Virus record (IMG/VR): IMGVR_UViG_3300043446_000453
Location: 1 to 25,866 of that record
DNA: 25,866 nucleotides
Direction: 5' to 3' (one strand)
DNA from: a virus
The notes beneath the pieces were generated by a model. It did no database searches. It was not told the origin of the DNA and was given only the letters and a program-made list of their open reading frames with translations. The first letter of the stretch is position 1; every line of letters begins with the position of its first letter. The translations under genes were made by a program, and so were the position numbers. This document shows, piece after piece, positions 4,260 through 15,681 of this stretch.

Positions 4260-4931
4260 TCAGATCTTTGACACAAACGTTGCCGTGAAGATTACAGACG
4301 GCAAAGCCGGGCGTGTAGGTGACGCTGCCGCTGGGTCCGCCTGGATAAAAGCAGAAGTGTTTGTGGTATGCCACTGTAAGCTAACGTTGTCCCCTGCCGC
4401 CATGTCAATAAACGTATTGACTGTCCCGATGCAGTAAAAAGGCGTGGCTGGGTTTTTACGCGCTGCCATGCCAAACCGGCTATTAGACCGGGGCACGTCC
4501 AAGCCATTGTGATGGAACCAGATGTCGATCGACTCGGTCGAGTTGGCCAAGTTAGCCAACTGAATACTAAACTGAAAGTTGTACCGCCCGGCCTTGGCAA
4601 CGACGACTTGATACCCGCCCACAAGAGAAATGTCGTCAGCTGCCTCAGTTGTGTCCAACTGCACGTTATAGGCAGTCGTTGTGCTGGCCGCTGTTTGGTT
4701 GGCGTTGGAGGTAAAACACCCGTTGGGAAAATAAATAGACGACCCATCGTTGATGGGAGACAGCGCGGTTGTACGCAGCTGGCTGTTAAATGCGTCTAGT
4801 TGGTTGAAATACAGGCGCAGGATGTTGGTGTACTGATCCATGAACCGCTGGTCGTAATCGACCGGGGCGGCTGCCAAACGCGGAGCAACAAACCTTTGCA
4901 GGTCTTGTTCGGTGTAAACGTATAAAGTCAT
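4260..4931 (-). CDS. Virion structural protein with jelly-roll-like C-terminal domain
   Basis: A 223-residue protein. I chose ATG 4931 because it overlaps the nozzle gene stop as ATGA; an earlier in-frame start lies deep inside that gene. The N-terminal third (LYVYTEQDLQRFVAPRL... and a helix ending FNQLDAFNSQL) is a helical adaptor-like segment. From about residue 95 the protein is beta-rich with the pattern of a C1q/TNF-type jelly roll: GGYQVVVAKAGRYNFQFSIQ, SIDIWFHHNGLDVPRSNSRF and a final SLQWHTTNTSAFIQA strand pair. Such domains occur in phage fibres and virion decoration proteins, where they usually trimerise. Located directly after the nozzle gene, it may be a protein attached to the tail tip. 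Its exact role is unknown. Confidence 0.75.
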   Translation of the reverse strand: MTLYVYTEQDLQRFVAPRLAAAPVDYDQRFMDQYTNILRLYFNQLDAFNSQLRTTALSPINDGSSIYFPNGCFTSNANQTAASTTTAYNVQLDTTEAADDISLVGGYQVVVAKAGRYNFQFSIQLANLANSTESIDIWFHHNGLDVPRSNSRFGMAARKNPATPFYCIGTVNTFIDMAAGDNVSLQWHTTNTSAFIQADPAAASPTRPALPSVIFTATFVSKI

Positions 4932-6889
4932 CGACGGCCATCCGGGCGCACATCCATGCGCGGGGTTCCCAACTGCCACGACACGCCAAGCTGGTCAGAC
5001 TCCACGCGGAACGCCATCTGACGGCCACGCAACCGGACATAGACCTGCTCCGTGAACTGCTGCACGTTATAGGACTGCTGGCCTACGTAATTCTGCGTAC
5101 TCTTAACTGCCGGATTGTCCGACGTGCCGTAATTGGTGCCGGGAAACTGGCGCGGGCGCACAGTGAAGTTGGCTTGGGGCTTGTTTACATCCGACCCGTC
5201 AAACGTGATGTCAGGAATCAGACGCCAAACAAAGCCAAAGTTGTGGCCGTCACCAATATCAAAATCGGAAGACTGAACGTAAGCAGTGATCGGAGAAGGG
5301 GGATCAGTTGTACCATCATCGTTTCCTGTCTCATGGTAAACCAGCTGGCCGTTTGATCCAGCGTAGGGCGTGGCCATGGGCTGGCTACGTAGCGGGCTAT
5401 CCAACCAAGAACTACGGCCAAGATTGCCGTAATACCAGGTGCGCTCCAAGTAGTTGTACACCACGTACTTGTCTACCGTGGTAGAAGCAGCAGAGCAATA
5501 AAACCACCAGATTTCGTTATAGCCCTCATTGGTTCCGGCGAACGCCTGGAAACCCTGCTGGACGTTAATGTCGTCGTAGATGTACTGACGGAGGGTGCAC
5601 GGAAGGGTTTCCACTCGACCGGAGTACATGTAGAACTTGTCAACACCCATCCAGTATGTGATGTTGTTGACTGTAGCAACGGCGTTGGGGCCCATGACGG
5701 AGATGTTGTCTCCCATGATTTGAAAGCCCCAGACGAACGGCGCTCCAAGATACTGCATGGAATAAATGGCTGCATCGGTAAGCACCAACACTTCCTGACG
5801 AGTCTGAATCGCCGTAATGATCTGCGACCCACGGCTCAGTCTATAGCTACCTGCCTGGTTGGTAATGTCTGGCGTCCATACGGCCAGGTTTTCCTGATCC
5901 GACCAACGAACCAGCATGGGATCAATAGCCGAAGAACCGTAGTCGTTAACGCCAAATGCCAGCACAAACCGCTGCGCGTCAGACACCATGACAAAGTTGC
6001 AAATGGACGGGCAATCCACATCCGTCAGCCACCACTGAATGCCGTTCTGGGTGTTGGTGTTGGTGGAAGAAAGCTCTTGCGCCCGGGTAAATGTGTTGGG
6101 ACTGGCGTCCACTACCCAGTAGTACAACGGGCCACCGCGCGGATTGAGAATCAGGTTTTGGCCAAAGTTGGCCTGGCTCCACAAACGCAGCTGCAATCCA
6201 ATGCCCGACGTAGCTGCTTCACCCCAGCCTGTATTACCGCTTGGATTGACACCGCCCCATGCGCCAGCACCCCAACCAACTCCGTAGGAAAACACATCAC
6301 TGCCGGTGTTGATCTGATACTCAAAGTCTGCGTCTACCGCAGGCGTTCCGCTTGACGTGGCGGTTACCGGGGATACGATTGAGTAGTGGTCGTTGTCGAT
6401 GTAGGTGATCTGGAATTCGCCTTCCAAGTCCACCGCCGGAATACCATTGACCGGCCCCGTTACGTTTGAAATGGTAACGAAGTCGTTGTTCTGTGCTCCG
6501 TGCCCAGTATCGTTAACAATAACCGTCGTGGTCCCGTCCGTGGTAAAGGCGTTGGTCACCCCGGTAACGGTGGAACGGATAGGCGTCACGTCATGAAAAT
6601 CACCGCTCGGACCATTCTGAACATAGAACTTCAGGTTTGTTCCAAGGCCCAGCAGGTTGTAGCCAGCCAAGGTAATCCAGTTCCACATCGAGCGGCAAAT
6701 GCCCCAGAACGTACCCGTGGGCGGAACATATTCCGTGGGAAGCCCCTGATCTTTGACCCAGCCGCCGATTTTTTCTGGGTAGCCGGAACGGAAACGCACT
6801 TTGTCGGACTCAAACCAGCCGCCCTCGTTGGCCAACGTGGTTGATTCCCGGTTGACACCCGGTCGGAACTGAAGTTTCTGTAAGGGCAT
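4928..6889 (-). CDS. Tail nozzle protein (P22 gp10 / T7 gp12 tail tubular B-like)
   Basis: A 653-residue protein starting at ATG 6889 behind AGGAG (6-base spacing), with the ribosome site overlapping the lysozyme stop. The opening PLQKLQFRPGVNRE...WFESDKVRFRSGYPEKIGGW is characteristic of podoviral nozzle proteins that bind the viral DNA end and form a beta-propeller tube. Later blades are visible as repeated W/Y-rich strands (VRWSDQENLAVWTPD, VLVLTDAAIYSMQYLG, NNITYWMGVDKFYMYSG, EIWWFYCSA, YLERTWYYG). Residues about 107-195 interrupt the propeller with an extra Ig/adhesin-like domain (GHGAQNNDFVTISNVTGP and ITYIDNDHYSI). The length is larger than P22 gp10 (about 470), largely because of this insert and the long C-terminus. 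It should form the hexameric tail end through which DNA leaves. Confidence 0.88.
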   Translation of the reverse strand: MPLQKLQFRPGVNRESTTLANEGGWFESDKVRFRSGYPEKIGGWVKDQGLPTEYVPPTGTFWGICRSMWNWITLAGYNLLGLGTNLKFYVQNGPSGDFHDVTPIRSTVTGVTNAFTTDGTTTVIVNDTGHGAQNNDFVTISNVTGPVNGIPAVDLEGEFQITYIDNDHYSIVSPVTATSSGTPAVDADFEYQINTGSDVFSYGVGWGAGAWGGVNPSGNTGWGEAATSGIGLQLRLWSQANFGQNLILNPRGGPLYYWVVDASPNTFTRAQELSSTNTNTQNGIQWWLTDVDCPSICNFVMVSDAQRFVLAFGVNDYGSSAIDPMLVRWSDQENLAVWTPDITNQAGSYRLSRGSQIITAIQTRQEVLVLTDAAIYSMQYLGAPFVWGFQIMGDNISVMGPNAVATVNNITYWMGVDKFYMYSGRVETLPCTLRQYIYDDINVQQGFQAFAGTNEGYNEIWWFYCSAASTTVDKYVVYNYLERTWYYGNLGRSSWLDSPLRSQPMATPYAGSNGQLVYHETGNDDGTTDPPSPITAYVQSSDFDIGDGHNFGFVWRLIPDITFDGSDVNKPQANFTVRPRQFPGTNYGTSDNPAVKSTQNYVGQQSYNVQQFTEQVYVRLRGRQMAFRVESDQLGVSWQLGTPRMDVRPDGRR

Positions 6890-9209: not shown

Positions 9210-9569
9210 TTACAGCATGCTTTCAGTCATTGGATACTTGGTTTCATCAAGCTGCTCCATATAAGCAGGCAAAGAGGCTGGGTCAACAATATCTTCACAG
9301 CCGCGCTCTCGGATAGCATGAATGCAGTGCACAACCGTGTGATCTTCTAGCGCCTCAAGCTCATGCACAACACCAGCTTTAATAAAAATATGCTGCGGGG
9401 CGACGAAGTCAGTTGATTTTCCAAGCGCCGTTAAACGTAACTTGCCTGACGCCAGCAACGTCAAATGGTCAAACAAATGAGCATGCCCCTCTTCCTTGTC
9501 GCCTGCATGCACAAAGTGCATTTGTTTGATAAACACATTTGACACGCAACTGATGGTGGTTGCCAACAT
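9210..9569 (-). CDS. Cupin-fold protein
   Basis: A 119-residue protein starting at ATG 9569 behind AAGGA (6-base spacing); longer in-frame extensions run back into the preceding gene and are rejected. The core is a single small cupin: GHAHLFDHLTLLASGKLRL, then a turn and IFIKAGVVHELEALED. His29, His31, His35 and His69 fall where cupins place their metal ligands (H-x-H-x3-H, then a later His), so a metal-binding beta barrel is likely. A C-terminal tail of about 35 residues (ERGCEDIVDPASLPAYMEQL) follows. Small cupins in phage fibre regions are seen often, but the substrate is unknown; sugar modification or a structural role are both possible. It sits between fibre genes and the lysis cassette. 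Confidence 0.75.
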   Translation of the reverse strand: MLATTISCVSNVFIKQMHFVHAGDKEEGHAHLFDHLTLLASGKLRLTALGKSTDFVAPQHIFIKAGVVHELEALEDHTVVHCIHAIRERGCEDIVDPASLPAYMEQLDETKYPMTESML

Positions 9570-9583
9570 TTGTTTTCCTTGTA

Positions 9584-9994
9584 TTAACCAATAATAGTTG
9601 GAGACTTGGGGGGCTGCGGACCAAACGGCACCCACTCGTGCAAGGCGTCGTCCCAAAGATAAATACCCCCATCTGTAGGATACGGCACAGGCGGTATCCA
9701 CATACAAACAGCCTCATCAAAGATGAAGTCGGGATATTCTTGCGTGTTGCCGAAACCGCCATACGGCGTTGCCGTACAGTTTGGATAAAAAGCCATCCCT
9801 ACACCGGCAAACCTTACACGAAAATTTCCGTTGTAAGACGTTTGTGCGTATGTCGCTGGCGGCAGAAAGGAATTAAGGTACGCAATACCCACAGACTCAC
9901 TTTCTGGAAACGGCAAATTGTCAACGTCGGAATTGTTAACAACTAATACGTCAACAATGACATTGTTCTCATCTAGTTTTGCAAAGTGCGCCAT
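9584..9994 (-). CDS. Conserved small phage tail-region protein (MAHFAK family)
   Basis: A 136-residue protein one base after the glycine-rich fibre stop (TGA T ATG). I recognise the pattern from many environmental and cyanobacterial phages: start MAHFAKLDENNVIVDVLVV, a central SYNGNFRVRFAGVGMAF, and a C-terminal WIPPVPYPTDGGIYLWDD block. It is rich in aromatic residues and Pro, with no membrane segment or catalytic motif. Relatives usually lie among tail fibre genes, so a fibre assembly or tail-associated role is inferred; no biochemical function is known to me. Confidence 0.8.
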   Translation of the reverse strand: MAHFAKLDENNVIVDVLVVNNSDVDNLPFPESESVGIAYLNSFLPPATYAQTSYNGNFRVRFAGVGMAFYPNCTATPYGGFGNTQEYPDFIFDEAVCMWIPPVPYPTDGGIYLWDDALHEWVPFGPQPPKSPTIIG

Positions 9995-11077: not shown

Positions 11078-11767
11078 TTACGGTGTCCCATAAGCAGTGA
11101 CGTTAGCCGCCGAGGTGATGTTGCCCGACGAGTCCATCGATGCGATTGTTGTTACGCCATACTTAAAAACAAGTTTACCGCCAGACTCGGTAATTGTGAA
11201 GTTAGTGGTAGCCAAGTTAGTTGCATTGGTTGCGTTGGTTACCGCGTTGGAGCCAATTGCAGACGTAATCTGTGAGCCCGTGGCAGCGGCAAACGTGGAG
11301 CCGTTGCTGTAAACAATTCCGGTAAAAGTAGGATTTGTGTCGAGCGTGTAGAAGTTTGTGCCGTTGCTAAACACGTAATACTTCTTGCCCGCCGGGATCG
11401 TGACACCTGTACCCGCCGGGGTGGTGTTGCCAAGCACCGAGCTGTTGTAGATCGTCATGCTCTGGGCGCTGTTGTTCCAGATCACATACTGTTTGGCGTT
11501 GGGCGGAGCGTACACGTTGAACGCCGTCCCGAGACCGGTCGTAAACGCTAATGATGCGTAGATTGCCTGGTTGGCTGATGCCGTAGCCGTAGACCCGCTG
11601 ACATAGGTGAGCGCCTGATCCGCACTGGCAGCCACCACAGTCTGAAAACCGGAGATCGCTGGGTCAATAACGTATGCCCAGGTATCGTTGGTCGTTGTGC
11701 CCCATGTGCCTGCTTGGGCACCGTTGGCGATTAGTTCAATTCTCAGGTCGGGAGAGTAAGTAGACAT
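11078..11767 (-). CDS. Tail fibre protein without chaperone domain
   Basis: A 229-residue protein starting at ATG 11767 behind AAGGA. The N-terminus (YSPDLRIELIANGAQAGTWG, TTNDTW) is a recognisable phage fibre attachment module. The middle is beta-rich with repeated YNSS/FSNGTNFYTLD strands typical of fibre shafts. The end (GGKLVFKYGVTTIASMDSSG and then ANVTAYGTP) stops just where the collagen-like fibre of this operon continues from NVTAY into an S74 chaperone domain. It therefore looks like a fibre whose intramolecular chaperone is absent, or which never needs one. Neighbours are the oxygenase (9 bp gap) and the glycine-rich adhesin. Probably a trimeric fibre part. Confidence 0.82.
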   Translation of the reverse strand: MSTYSPDLRIELIANGAQAGTWGTTTNDTWAYVIDPAISGFQTVVAASADQALTYVSGSTATASANQAIYASLAFTTGLGTAFNVYAPPNAKQYVIWNNSAQSMTIYNSSVLGNTTPAGTGVTIPAGKKYYVFSNGTNFYTLDTNPTFTGIVYSNGSTFAAATGSQITSAIGSNAVTNATNATNLATTNFTITESGGKLVFKYGVTTIASMDSSGNITSAANVTAYGTP

Positions 11768-11776
11768 GCTGTGTCC

Positions 11777-12322
11777 TTATCGAAAACGAGGGCCTCGCAG
11801 CCACATTGTTGCCGACTTACGTACTCCTGACGTAACCGGCACTACACGATGTTCCAAAAACGATGGAAACGCAATCACTGACCCCTTGACCAGCGGAGCA
11901 GTGTACTCGGAATATAGCCGAATCTGGAACTCTCCGCCAGTAAATTCAGCAGGATCATTCAGCAGGCAGACCACCGTCATCTTTCGGTCCATGGGCAGCC
12001 CTGACAGGGGGAAAACATCTACGTGCCAGTGGTAATGCTGCTCCGGCCCGTACTCGGCAAACTGGATATTCTCGTTGTCCGTGACGTGGAATTCCCAGCG
12101 GCAAGCCTGGTTCCCGGCAAAAGCCACCTGGGTCAGGTAGTTATCAAACCAGTGATTAGGCCCGGCAAACCGGACGGTGGTGTTTCGGTGAACATGGTCC
12201 TGAGTCTCCCCCTCGGTACCCATTGTGGCGTCTTTGGCTGGCAGGGAGGAAAAGTCCTCCACTGCCTTGTCGCAGATTTCCGGGGGTACGGTTCCTAGAT
12301 ACCAGATGGGGAGGTGACTCAA
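11777..12322 (-). CDS. 2-oxoglutarate/Fe(II)-dependent oxygenase, prolyl 4-hydroxylase type
   Basis: A 181-residue protein. The double-stranded beta-helix signature is complete: His100-x-Asp102 ([10 protein letters not shown]), distal His158 ([12 protein letters not shown]) and Arg168 ten residues later (GVRKSATMW), which should bind the 2-oxoglutarate carboxylate. A GGEFQI strand lies between, as in the P4H/PKHD families. The start is TTG at 12322, overlapping the fibre stop as TTGA with GGAAG upstream; the next ATG (residue 34) would delete conserved N-terminal sequence. Coupling to the collagen-like fibre suggests hydroxylation of Pro (or Lys/Thr) in its triplets. This target is inference. 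AlkB-type nucleic-acid repair is unlikely, since the AlkB N-x-Y-x-x-G and R-x5-R patterns are missing. Confidence 0.88.
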
Positions 12323-14571
12323 TTGCGTTCTTCCAGTTTCTTCTCAAGTTCCAAGATGCGCTGGGCCAGCTTGACACAGGCAGCCAAAGCGGCATTTCCG
12401 TACGCCACACGCAACAATCCTTCGTCGTCAGCAGATACAGCTTCTGCCACCACATTGCTGAAAGACTGTGCTCCTACACCAACCTGACGCATGCCCGTGT
12501 CAGTGCGCTTAAACGTACCAGCTTTAGTAGACGCCAAACGCTCGATAAAGTCGTCCGGCAGCTCTTCCCAGTCAACCTTCAGGCGCTCGTCCGAATAAGC
12601 GGTAACGTTACCGCCCGTGGCAAAATCACCAGAACTGGCGTTATAAGTCAGCGCGGTTGCGGTTGTACGAACCCGGGGTGTGTCGTTGGCTCCGGCGGAA
12701 CCGGTAAATAGCAAGTAGTAAGTTGCAGCGGTCGTCGTGTTTGTTGCGTTGATTACCGTGCTGGGTCCGGTCGGGCCGGTTGGTCCCGTGGGCCCCGTGG
12801 GCCCCGTGGGTCCGGGAGAGCCCGTAGGTCCAGTAGGTCCAGTAGGTCCAGGACTACCCGTTGGACCAGTGGGGCCGGTAGATCCGGTGGGTCCGGTAGC
12901 ACCTTGAGAACCTGTATCCGTAATGGTCCAAGCAGCAAGAGTTCCGCTGCCACCTGTATAGTCAACACTAATGGTCAACGAAGTAGTGGTATAGGCCGTG
13001 ATTGCACCGGCCATAAAGTTGGCTGGCGTTGTGGTGTTGAACGCACGAACATATTGACCAACAACAAAGGCGTTTGTACCTTGGGCTTGGTTAACCGTAA
13101 ACGTCTTGGCCCCGGTGCCAATAAGCAAAGATGTGGCTGACGTAAGCCCTGCATAACCCAAACCTGTGGGTCCAGTAGGGCCAGGAGCGCCGGTGGGGCC
13201 CGTAGGCCCGGTTGGTCCCGTAGCGCCTTGCGATCCGGTATCTGTAATTGTCCACGCAGAAAAGGTGCCCGAGCCCCCAATGTAATCCACGCTAACAGTA
13301 AGCGTTGTGCTGGAATACGCCGTAATTGTGCCCGCCATGTAGTTAGCAGGGGTGGCGGTGTTAAATACGCGGATGTACTGACCAACCACAAAAGCATTCG
13401 TGCCCTGCGCTTGGTTAACAGTAAATGTTTTTGAGCCCGTAGCAATTGCCACCGACGAGGTTGAGGTCAAACCTGCATAGCCAAGGCCCGTGGGGCCAGT
13501 GGGGCCAGTGGGGCCGGGAGAACCTGTAGGTCCGGTAGGTCCAGTAGGCCCGGTGGGGCCCGTAGGTCCAGTGGGGCCTGTAGGAATGGTAAACGCAAAC
13601 ACCGCAGCGCTTGACGTGCCAGTATTTACAACAGACGCACTGCCGCCTGCCGGGCTAGTCGTGGTCGGACCAACAGCAATCGTAGCTGCCGTACCTGTTG
13701 GGCCGGTTGGTCCAGTAGGTCCAGTAGGACCAGTCGGTCCTGTAGCACCTTGAGAACCGGTATCAGTAATGGTCCATGCAGACAGCGTACCGCTTCCACC
13801 GGTGTAGTCAACGCTGATGGTTAACGAAGTTGTGGTGTAAGCTGTTATCGCCCCTGCCATGAAGTTGGTAGGCGTCCCGGTGTTAAAAGCACGGACGTAC
13901 TGGCCAACCACAAACGCGTTGGTTCCCTGGGCTTGGTTAACCGTAAACGTCTTGGAGCCGGTACCAATCGCCACCGAGGATGTAGATGTCAGACCGGAAT
14001 AACCCAACCCAGTAGGACCTGTGGGGCCAGTCGGACCGGTAGGGCCCGGGCTTCCCGTGGGGCCCGTAGGGCCTGTGGGACCAGTCGGCCCTTGCAAAGC
14101 AGCCGCAGCAATAGTTGCCTTTTTGTTGGCGCCCGAGGCGGCGTTATACAGGAGAATGGTGTCCGTGCTGGCAACCGACGGCGCAGAGGCTGTACCGTTA
14201 ATGTCCAGGCTTGTGGCCGCTACTAGGCCGTTGTTAGAGAACACAACCGTTGTGCCGTCAACCCACACGCCGCGCTCAGACGGATATGTGGCAAAGACGT
14301 TCTTGGTTCCCGCAGCAAATGAAATCTTGGCGCCGGAGGCGCTGGAGGCTAGGATGGTTGTGCGAGCAAGTGTTGGACCTGTCGTAGAGTACGTACCAAT
14401 ACCTACTTCCCAGGCACCAGCACTTGGATCATACGCTGTGTAATAGGTTGTGTTTCCGTTGCCAATCGCGGCAAAGGTTTGGTATGAAAGCACCGCTCCG
14501 CCAAGAACGAAATCACTTGTTCCTGTCGTTGTAGTGGTTTCTTGGACCCTGTCCTGTAGAACTAAAGCCAT
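12319..14571 (-). CDS. Collagen-like tail fibre with C-terminal S74 intramolecular chaperone
   Basis: A 750-residue protein (ATG 14571; AGGA 6 bases upstream). Residues 1-100 are an N-terminal fibre domain, 100-160 a linker, and 161-603 alternate Gly-Pro-Thr collagen-like segments (161-188, 276-293, 332-362, 449-470, 557-603) with three near-identical beta modules (189-275, 363-448, 471-556) and one TAATIAVGP module (294-330). Residues 651-750 are a peptidase S74 chaperone: [11 protein letters not shown] carries the Ser660/Lys665 pair expected to cut the chain before Ser660, and a final EL-EKK coiled coil follows. The chaperone should drive trimerisation and then be released. The stop overlaps the hydroxylase start. 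Triple-helix formation is supported by about 47 regular Gly-X-Y triplets. Confidence 0.92.
12763..14091 (-). repeat. Collagen-like Gly-Pro-Thr triplet repeats, five segments
   Basis: Nine-base-periodic coding repeats (Gly-Pro-Thr) lie at 14008-14091, 13693-13746, 13486-13578, 13162-13227 and 12763-12903. Most triplets are GPT. GSP or GAP triplets, the only ones with Pro in the Y position, occur at residues 173-175, 350-352, 461-463, 572-574 and 584-586. Synonymous codons vary between copies, yet the DNA remains repetitive enough for slippage or recombination to change segment length. Confidence 0.9.
12904..14007 (-). repeat. Three tandem copies of a ~86-residue beta module in the collagen-like fibre
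   Basis: Copies lie at about 13747-14007, 13228-13485 and 12904-13161. Each runs from GLGY(S/A)GLTS through [19 protein letters not shown] and TLT(I/V)SVDY to [14 protein letters not shown]. Copies 1 and 3 are closest. Wobble positions differ, so the duplication is not recent or has been selected to diverge at DNA level. The modules probably act as knobs between triple-helix rods and may bind sugars. Confidence 0.85.
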
Positions 14572-14580
14572 CTTTTATCC

Positions 14581-15681
14581 TCAACATTCCTCTGTCACAA
14601 CAAGATCCCACTCGGCATCCTGGCTGTTTTGGATAGTTTGCCAACCTGCATTTTGGGTGGTGTCAATTATCGTCCAATTGCGGGGGCAGACATCGCCCAC
14701 TATACCCACCGCCTGCACCCCGGTCAAGGCGTTGATGTGGATGACGCCAAACTGTCCGACTTGGCCAAGCGCCTGGACTCCGGTCAGCGGGATTTCAAAC
14801 ACAGGGTATACCGTACCGACCTGGCCGGTAGCCTGTACGCCGGTCAAAGCATGCTGTCTGTTGGGCGTTAATGTACCAACTTGCCCGGTGGCCTCAACGC
14901 CTGTAAGCGGGAACGACTTAACCCCAACAACGGTTCCGACATCGCCGTACCCAACTGACGGGTTGTGCACCTGGTGGCCGCCCCAAGCAACGTCGTAGTA
15001 ACCGCCGCTTGAGGTATCCCCGCCCCACGGACCCATGCCCCAGCCAAGATCGTCAATTGTGCTTAGCGCAACAATAACAGGAAGAGTGTATGTAATTGTG
15101 CCTACACTACCGGTGGCCGCATTTCCAGTCAGCGCAACTGTCTTGCTTTGAGTAACGCTTCCCACAGCCCCCGTTGCCGCGTTACCGGAGAGAGTGAACG
15201 CATTGCTATACGCAACCGTGCCAACAGCGGAAGTAGAAACATTGCCGGTTAACGCCAGATTTTGACTCGGTACAGCCGTACCCACGGACCCGGTAGCCGA
15301 ATTGCCAGTTAGCGCCTGATTCCGACTTGGGACAACGGTTCCAACGGAGCCTGTTGCCGCAACACCCGTAATTGCCTCAGTTGGTGTGGGCTGTTCGTTG
15401 CCAACCAAACCTTGGCCAGCGACGCCAGTTAGTGATACGGTGAGCGTGGAGAAAGTAACGGAGCCAACGGAACCTGTAGCGGCTACGCCGGTTATAACAT
15501 CTGTCTTTGCAAAGACAACAGTGCCTACAGAACCGGTTGCGGCAACCCCGCTAAGCGCTTGGGAAGCAGACAGCGTAACGGAGCCTACGGACCCAGTGAC
15601 CGCAATTCCGGTAATGGCAACAACTACATCACCGCTTGTCGAGGCAAGTGGTGCTGCTGCTAGTGGGGTTAAACCCAGCAT
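14581..15681 (-). CDS. Repeat protein: 13 twenty-residue TG-x-x-A-x-G-x-V-G repeats, likely tail fibre
   Basis: A 366-residue protein starting at ATG 15681 behind GGGAG. After a short Ala-rich start it consists of repeats with consensus LTGVAATGSVGTV-x6 at 20-residue spacing: nine copies (residues 22-203), a Trp/Gly-rich linker (WGMGPWGG, about 204-256), then four copies (257-335). Residues 336-366 hold a second repeat, three 11-residue units each starting with Trp (W336, W347, W358). Only one spacing is 21 instead of 20. No catalytic motif is present. The regular repeats suggest a beta-solenoid or stacked-strand shaft. Its position just before the collagen-like fibre makes a tail fibre or appendage role likely. 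I do not recognise a named family. Confidence 0.8.
   Translation of the reverse strand: MLGLTPLAAAPLASTSGDVVVAITGIAVTGSVGSVTLSASQALSGVAATGSVGTVVFAKTDVITGVAATGSVGSVTFSTLTVSLTGVAGQGLVGNEQPTPTEAITGVAATGSVGTVVPSRNQALTGNSATGSVGTAVPSQNLALTGNVSTSAVGTVAYSNAFTLSGNAATGAVGSVTQSKTVALTGNAATGSVGTITYTLPVIVALSTIDDLGWGMGPWGGDTSSGGYYDVAWGGHQVHNPSVGYGDVGTVVGVKSFPLTGVEATGQVGTLTPNRQHALTGVQATGQVGTVYPVFEIPLTGVQALGQVGQFGVIHINALTGVQAVGIVGDVCPRNWTIIDTTQNAGWQTIQNSQDAEWDLVVTEEC
14677..15618 (-). repeat. Twenty-residue (60 bp) coding repeats, 9 + 4 copies
   Basis: Two blocks of 60 bp coding repeats (about 15073-15618 and 14677-14913) are separated by a 160 bp unique linker. Copies keep I/L-[TS]-G-x4-G-x-V-G while the six residues between cores vary, suggesting selection on structure with freedom in loops. 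Confidence 0.85.

What the first reader, a model, noticed from the sequence alone, without database searches (positions are those of the whole stretch)
11777..14571. Collagen-like tail fibre translationally coupled to a prolyl-hydroxylase-type oxygenase
The fibre stop and the oxygenase start overlap (TTGA). The oxygenase has the full His-x-Asp...His...Arg ligand set of P4H/PKHD enzymes, and its neighbour is a collagen-like protein. Animal collagen is stabilised by 4-hydroxyproline in the Y position of Gly-X-Y. Here most triplets are Gly-Pro-Thr (Pro at X), but five GSP/GAP triplets place Pro at Y (P175, P352, P463, P574, P586). A phage that hydroxylates its own fibre, and perhaps enables Thr glycosylation as in Bacillus BclA GPT repeats, would be a new virion-maturation system.
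Basis: partly seen in the sequence, partly recalled or inferred. Interest (0 to 1): 0.85.

Follow-up and report, generated by a model that had tools for sequence, protein, structure and literature searches.

The report
Phage enzyme modifying its collagen-like fibre
This phage fragment carries a collagen-like tail-fibre gene overlapped by a gene for an enzyme of the kind that hydroxylates collagen in animals; comparison with relatives suggests that some bacterial viruses chemically mature collagen-like fibres, and a few isolated ones even carry a version of the animal enzymes that hydroxylate collagen lysines and add sugars.

Summary
In detail: a 750-aa collagen-like fibre (52 Gly-X-Y triplets, 38 GPT, five Y-position prolines exactly as listed) overlaps by TTGA a 181-aa 2OG-Fe(II) oxygenase with intact HxD...H...R, under purifying selection. 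Its confidently predicted fold matches peptidyl-prolyl hydroxylases best, including the PBCV-1 collagen hydroxylase. In its own clade 20 of 20 members with usable flanks lie beside a collagen-like fibre carrying Y-Pro; across the sampled family 55 of 89 do, while collagen occurs in 5/76, 6/74 and 11/48 loci anchored on other tail genes. Strongest evidence: 14 related loci, including isolated cyanophages S-PRM1, S-CAM9 and S-8S53, have a further overlapping gene with procollagen-galactosyltransferase-like, PLOD/LH3-glucosyltransferase-like and lysyl-hydroxylase-like domains; all 14 neighbour Lys-at-Y collagens, versus 3 of 57 without that gene. Roseobacter phage CRP-6 repeats the pairing. Self-modification of collagen-like fibres is the best reading; here prolyl hydroxylation is likeliest, Thr glycosylation unsupported. 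Limits: about a third of relatives (some with the sugar-transferase gene) lack collagen, most phage collagens lack the enzyme, and no chemistry has been measured.

The parts
12319..14571 (-). collagen-like tail fibre, 750 aa: N-terminal domain, GPT-type collagen blocks, three 84-aa repeat modules (79-89% identical), C-terminal S74 chaperone domain
   Evidence: PF01391 6e-23, PF13884 3.3e-5 above cut-off; PHROG tail fibre families; repeats
11777..12322 (-). 2OG-Fe(II) oxygenase, P4H-like, 181 aa, TTG start
   Evidence: PF13640 1.4e-16; phrog_61 C-terminal part 7e-38; AlphaFold2 pLDDT 93.7, pTM 0.89; Foldseek best E-value P. putida P4H 4iw3, highest TM-score among the listed hits PBCV-1 vCPH 5c5t 0.74; dN/dS 0.04-0.19
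12319..12322 (-). four-base TTGA stop/start overlap of fibre and oxygenase
   Evidence: sequence; same 4-base overlap in L001-L008, L013, L017, L040, L180
14011..14091 (-). collagen block 1, fibre residues 161-187 (9 triplets, one GSP, P175)
13687..13758 (-). collagen block 2, fibre residues 272-295 (8 triplets)
13489..13578 (-). collagen block 3, fibre residues 332-361 (10 triplets, one GSP, P352)
13165..13236 (-). collagen block 4, fibre residues 446-469 (8 triplets, one GAP, P463)
12760..12912 (-). collagen block 5, fibre residues 554-604 (17 triplets, two GSP, P574 and P586)
11078..11767 (-). next gene downstream, 229-aa tail-type protein (phrog_31104), the constant downstream neighbour in most close relatives
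   Evidence: phrog_31104 8.6e-9; gene maps; anchor set

Best explanation
The oxygenase is a phage peptidyl hydroxylase that acts on the collagen-like segments of the fibre translated just before it from the same message. Using 2-oxoglutarate, Fe(II) and O2 in the infected cell, it hydroxylates prolines of the unfolded chain, most likely the Y-position prolines of GSP/GAP triplets and perhaps X-position prolines of GPT, before trimerisation by the C-terminal S74 domain; the product is a more stable or differently surfaced fibre. It is the simple, hydroxylation-only form of a wider set of phage fibre-modification operons, whose larger form adds a galactosyltransferase-like, glucosyltransferase-like and lysyl-hydroxylase-like protein beside Lys-rich collagens. 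Shown: gene order, fold, motifs, associations. Inferred: substrate, residue, timing and benefit.
For: Fold and profile place it among peptidyl-prolyl hydroxylases: PBCV-1 P4H 1.4e-11, B. anthracis P4H 1.5e-8, algal P4H 3e-8, and Foldseek. Window clade: 20/20 non-redundant members with usable flanks beside collagen-like fibres, all with Y-Pro and no Y-Lys. Anchor sets not chosen for collagen or oxygenase, collagen in loci with against without oxygenase: 6/11 against 0/63 (phrog_3287-type tail gene), 3/5 against 2/71 (fibre N-terminus), 6/8 against 5/40 (downstream gene); tree-corrected, 5 of 5 independent pairs agree, sign test p 0.0625, the minimum possible. Related operons: PLOD-like gene overlapping or adjoining the oxygenase in 14 collagen loci, all with Y-Lys collagens, against 3/57 otherwise; its domains match human LH3 4e-33, COLGALT1 7e-23 and mimivirus L230 1e-9. 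CRP-6 repeats the pairing. B. anthracis P4H hydroxylates both X and Y prolines of (PPG)n (PMC8968730).
Against: 34 of 89 classifiable relatives have no collagen neighbour, and 15 of 16 long records of that kind have none anywhere, including three GT-bearing records (L104, L106, L108; 56-91 kb). The sister group (45-48% identical) is coupled to terminase. Only 14 of 111 GPT and 2 of 80 GPx phage collagen loci have the enzyme. Y-Pro is not enriched overall (p 0.28). L006 keeps the enzyme with five triplets and no Y-Pro; L087 keeps it with a Pro-free collagen. The closeness-to-collagen rank test was not significant (p 0.23). The top Foldseek hit acts on EF-Tu. Fisher tests treat related phages as independent.
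Confidence: 0.6

Rival explanations
1. The enzyme hydroxylates a host protein such as elongation factor Tu, as the structurally closest enzyme from Pseudomonas putida does; the place beside the fibre is only a convenient late-expression slot.
For: Best Foldseek hit by E-value is P. putida P4H in complex with EF-Tu. Relatives occur beside terminase, helicase and DNA-repair genes.
Against: Does not explain the recurrent collagen pairing or the collagen-type glycosyltransferases in related operons.
Confidence: 0.12
2. The enzyme modifies another virion or tail protein, for example the conserved downstream tail protein or a non-collagen part of fibres, so collagen is a frequent but incidental neighbour.
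For: Oxygenases also follow non-collagen fibre or tail genes (cyanophage records), and the downstream tail gene is the constant neighbour in the window's clade.
Against: Collagen-negative tail loci mostly lack the enzyme; where collagen is present, the PLOD-like partner occurs only with Lys-at-Y collagens.
Confidence: 0.15
3. The family works in nucleic acid repair or in changing host 2-oxoglutarate levels, as proposed for cyanophage 2OG-Fe(II) oxygenases, and travels with tail cassettes.
For: Published proposal (PMC3037559); neighbours include UvsW and endonuclease V in some cyanophages.
Against: The best structural matches are P4H and PKHD enzymes; recurrent coupling to collagen-like fibres.
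Confidence: 0.06
4. A variant of the main explanation: the enzyme acts on the fibre, but X-position proline of GPT (or Thr) is the real target and the GSP/GAP triplets are irrelevant.
For: 38 of 52 triplets are GPT; 10 non-redundant collagen-linked relatives have neither Y-Pro nor Y-Lys, and these have X-Pro; GPT is enriched in oxygenase-linked collagens (p 0.003).
Against: Y-Pro is present in all members of the window's clade; several oxygenase-linked collagens have almost no X-Pro but do have Y-Pro.
Confidence: 0.2

Closest known systems
PBCV-1 prolyl 4-hydroxylase (vCPH, PDB 5c5t)
   Same: virus-encoded small P4H fold; highest TM-score (0.74) among the listed hits and profile match 1.4e-11
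   Different: algal virus, not a bacteriophage; no coupled collagen-like fibre gene was examined here
Mimivirus L230 / R699 with collagen L71 (PMC9546862, PMC9614988)
   Same: a virus that hydroxylates and glucosylates its own collagen-like proteins; the PLOD-like gene of related phages matches L230 and R699
   Different: giant virus of amoebae, Lys chemistry; the window itself has neither GT nor Lys-rich collagen
Bacillus anthracis P4H (PDB 3itq, 5hv0)
   Same: bacterial P4H that hydroxylates collagen-like peptides (PMC8968730); profile match 1.5e-8
   Different: bacterial gene, not virion-associated
Human LH3/PLOD3 with COLGALT1
   Same: domain content of the extra gene in related phages (GT25, PLOD GT, 2OG lysyl hydroxylase)
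   Different: in phages the three domains are in one protein; the window lacks it; the usual 2OG arginine position is Lys
E. coli prophage collagen-like fibres (PMC3368898)
   Same: phage tail fibres with a collagen triple helix
   Different: those authors state that bacteria and viruses lack the prolyl hydroxylase; here a P4H-like gene is coupled to the fibre

Membership tests
2OG-Fe(II) oxygenase, PF13640 / phrog_61 | profile score above cut-off; HxD...H metal ligands and 2OG-binding Arg | tested here: met
   61.6 bits against 27; H100, D102, H158, R168 invariant in 40 sequences
Peptidyl prolyl 4-hydroxylase | P4H/PHD-type double-stranded beta-helix fold | tested here: met
   pLDDT 93.7 model; the top hits are dominated by P4H/PHD structures, with PKHD/PiuC oxygenases among them
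Peptidyl prolyl 4-hydroxylase | hydroxylates peptidyl proline | not testable with these tools
   needs enzyme assay and mass spectrometry
PKHD-type hydroxylase YbiX/PiuC (NCBIfam equivalogs) | score above the curated cut-off | tested here: not met
   48.7 bits against 143; the other three models score lower against higher cut-offs
Collagen triple helix repeat protein (PF01391) | Gly-X-Y runs scoring above cut-off | tested here: met
   80.8 bits against 27.2
Collagen triple helix repeat protein (PF01391) | forms a triple helix | not testable with these tools
   needs CD or microscopy
PLOD/LH3-type collagen lysyl hydroxylase-glycosyltransferase | GT_PLOD domain in the window | tested here: not met
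   no hit to the GT25 or GT_PLOD models in any window ORF
PLOD/LH3-type collagen lysyl hydroxylase-glycosyltransferase (related phages S-PRM1, L345, CRP-6) | GT_PLOD and GT25 domains above cut-off | tested here: met
   PF25342 9e-46, 4e-49, 5e-28 and PF01755 hits, all above cut-off
PLOD/LH3-type collagen lysyl hydroxylase-glycosyltransferase (related phages S-PRM1, L345, CRP-6) | C-terminal lysyl-hydroxylase 2OG domain | tested here: inconclusive
   S-PRM1 matches L230 lysyl hydroxylase at 1e-9 and HxD...H is invariant, but PF13640 scores are below cut-off in L345 and CRP-6 and Lys replaces the usual Arg

The most novel reading that the evidence does not exclude
Tailed phages carry their own collagen maturation pathways for virion fibres in at least two forms: a prolyl-hydroxylase form (this window and its clade) and a form with lysyl hydroxylation followed by galactosylation and glucosylation, found in isolated cyanophages and a Roseobacter phage, which rebuilds in one operon the chemistry of animal LH3 and COLGALT1.
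Probability: 0.55. Interest if true: 0.9.

Novelty: new variant of a known kind. Interest (0 to 1): 0.78.

Why it matters
Collagen hydroxylation and hydroxylysine glycosylation are known mainly from animals and a few large viruses of eukaryotes; the papers read here say that bacteria and viruses lack the prolyl hydroxylase (PMC3368898) or leave the role of viral P4H and cyanophage 2OG oxygenases open (PMC9301287, PMC9602691). The gene pairing gives these common marine phage enzymes a concrete, testable substrate, and several of the phages are in culture, so one mass-spectrometry experiment on virions could settle it. It would also offer compact collagen-modifying enzymes that work in bacteria.

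Tried and rejected
Overall Y-Pro enrichment in oxygenase-linked collagens: not found (p 0.28); enrichment appears only in the GPT-type subset, chosen afterwards. Rank test that the oxygenase is the gene nearest to collagen in collagen-anchored loci: not significant (p 0.23). Genome-collection scan for the oxygenase: one Burkholderiales MAG contig at 37% identity, no host assignment. The fibre C-terminal anchor gave only three relatives. The 607-aa PLOD-like model was of middling confidence (pLDDT 71.6, pTM 0.42) and was not searched further. The 360-aa oxygenase ORFs in L333, L322 and L307 look like start-codon read-through rather than fusions (inference from sequence). A strict first paper query found nothing. 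Thr glycosylation by the window: no GT25 or PLOD-type GT found.

Full report
Observation. Both genes read as described. The fibre (14571-12319, minus strand) has 52 Gly-X-Y triplets in runs of three or more, 38 of them GPT, with Y-position prolines at exactly the five residues named, a PF01391 match and a C-terminal S74 chaperone domain. Between collagen blocks lie three 84-residue modules that are 79-89% identical. The oxygenase (12322-11777) starts with TTG and shares TTGA with the fibre stop; CTGGAAG precedes it. Homology that begins upstream of the first internal Met supports the TTG start. Its ligands H100, D102, H158 and R168 are invariant in 40 diverse homologues, and dN/dS of 0.04-0.19 against seven relatives shows that the protein is maintained.

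What the enzyme is. It belongs to PF13640 and to the C-terminal part of phrog_61. The AlphaFold2 model is confident (pLDDT 93.7, pTM 0.89). Foldseek returns P. putida P4H with EF-Tu first by E-value, and the viral collagen prolyl hydroxylase of PBCV-1 with the highest TM-score in the list shown (0.74). A family profile finds PKHD oxygenases, PBCV-1 P4H, B. anthracis P4H and algal P4H. It fails the NCBIfam PKHD equivalog cut-offs. A peptidyl hydroxylase is therefore likelier than a DNA-repair enzyme, but the substrate cannot be read from the fold.

Is the pairing special? Close relatives keep the oxygenase constant while the gene overlapping it upstream varies: the collagen-S74 fibre in most, a 120-aa DUF7936 protein in L009-L012 and a 139-aa protein in L014/L015, with the collagen fibre one gene further up where the contig reaches it; the visible fibre end in L011 has no repeats. 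A tree of 105 non-redundant oxygenases gives 55 with a collagen neighbour, 34 without despite at least 3 kb upstream, and 16 with too short a flank; in the window's clade 20 of 20 with usable flanks have one, all with Y-Pro. In sets anchored on other genes, collagen presence goes with oxygenase presence: 6/11 against 0/63, 3/5 against 2/71, 6/8 against 5/40. On a tree of the phrog_3287-type tail gene, 5 of 5 independent pairs agree (p 0.0625, the best possible with five). Starting instead from collagen, 14 of 111 (GPT) and 2 of 80 (GPx) loci have the oxygenase, in all 16 downstream on the same strand; most phage collagens do without it.

A link to collagen chemistry. In isolated cyanophages S-PRM1, S-CAM9 and S-8S53 a fibre with 55-59 consecutive triplets and Lys at about 40% of Y positions is followed by a small gene, two oxygenases and a 613-621-aa protein. 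The two of these proteins scanned, from S-PRM1 and S-8S53, match the PLOD GT domain (PF25342 9e-46, 2e-47) and GT25. In PDB sequences the S-PRM1 protein matches human LH3 (4e-33), procollagen galactosyltransferase 1 (7e-23) and the mimivirus L230 lysyl hydroxylase (1e-9). The phrog_61 profile spans this whole protein (4e-268), so the window's enzyme is related to its C-terminal domain. Searching all loci, this gene occurs in 14 non-redundant collagen loci with the oxygenase, and all 14 collagens are of the Lys-at-Y type, against 3 of 57 oxygenase loci without it; none of the 182 collagen loci without oxygenase has it. The Lys cut-off of 0.1 had been set before this gene was seen. Catalytic-site motifs are invariant across homologues, except that Lys stands where the 2OG arginine is usual. 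Roseobacter phage CRP-6, found by searching with the PLOD-like protein, has a 97-triplet fibre with 26 Lys at Y and only 6 Pro, the PLOD-like gene one gene downstream, and no separate oxygenase of this family in its complete genome.

Which residue in the window? The window's collagen blocks have no Lys in the triplets counted, and the window has no GT25 or PLOD-type GT, so Lys chemistry is unlikely. Y-Pro is universal in the clade, and 60 of 71 Y-Pro triplets in the close set counted are GSP or GAP. X-Pro of GPT remains possible: B. anthracis P4H modifies both positions (PMC8968730), and ten collagen-linked relatives have neither Y-Pro nor Y-Lys. CRP-6, almost Pro-free and without the separate oxygenase, suggests that this oxygenase serves Pro; L087, Pro-free but with it, speaks against.

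Limits. About a third of relatives lack a collagen neighbour; of 16 long records of that kind 15 have no collagen anywhere, including three with the PLOD-like gene (L104, L106, L108); in L104 the oxygenase and PLOD-like gene follow a fibre-like gene without collagen. The sister group lies between terminase and the next gene, probably portal. Associations are between related phages, so Fisher values overstate independence. Some subset tests were chosen after looking. No modification has been measured.

Known context. Mimivirus hydroxylates and glucosylates its collagens (PMC9546862, PMC9614988). Cyanophage 2OG oxygenases have been assigned to DNA repair or 2-oxoglutarate control (PMC3037559) or left open (PMC9602691); the use of viral P4H is called cryptic (PMC9301287). 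None of the papers read here reports a phage PLOD-like enzyme; most subscription papers were not searchable.

Noticed in passing
L552 8555-10396 (S-PRM1), L554, L556, L561 8926-10692 (CRP-6): Phage proteins with GT25, PLOD-type GT and lysyl-hydroxylase-like domains, annotated as hypothetical or 2OG oxygenase family.
   Followed up: yes
L104, L106, L108: PLOD-like gene and oxygenase, in L104 after a tail-fibre-like gene, with no collagen in the whole record (56-91 kb); substrate unexplained.
   Followed up: partly
L333 1639-3900, L322, L307: Two or three different 2OG-type oxygenase genes in a row before a short collagen-like protein.
   Followed up: partly
L048 6882-7997, L075, L134: Proteins of 370-385 aa that look like two oxygenase halves; in L048 the N-terminal half matches a PHROG named ferrochelatase, which may be a misannotation.
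   Followed up: no
L049, L051, L052: Closest sister group of the oxygenase, coupled to the end of what looks like terminase and followed by a portal-like gene.
   Followed up: partly
window 14581-15681: Repetitive 366-aa protein of ALTGNAATGSVGTV-like units just upstream of the fibre; no family match.
   Followed up: no
window 4260-4979: Weak match to the BclA C-terminal domain (E 0.002, below cut-off) in another structural-region protein.
   Followed up: no
window 9210-9707: Cupin-like small protein with a weak short-tail-fibre PHROG match; similar small cupin-like genes lie in L009, L010 and L017.
   Followed up: no
L087 1733-3970, CRP-6 fibre: Lys in these fibres is mostly in KGQKGE/KGQKGQ units, which resemble glycosylated Lys sites of animal collagen (comparison from memory).
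   Followed up: no
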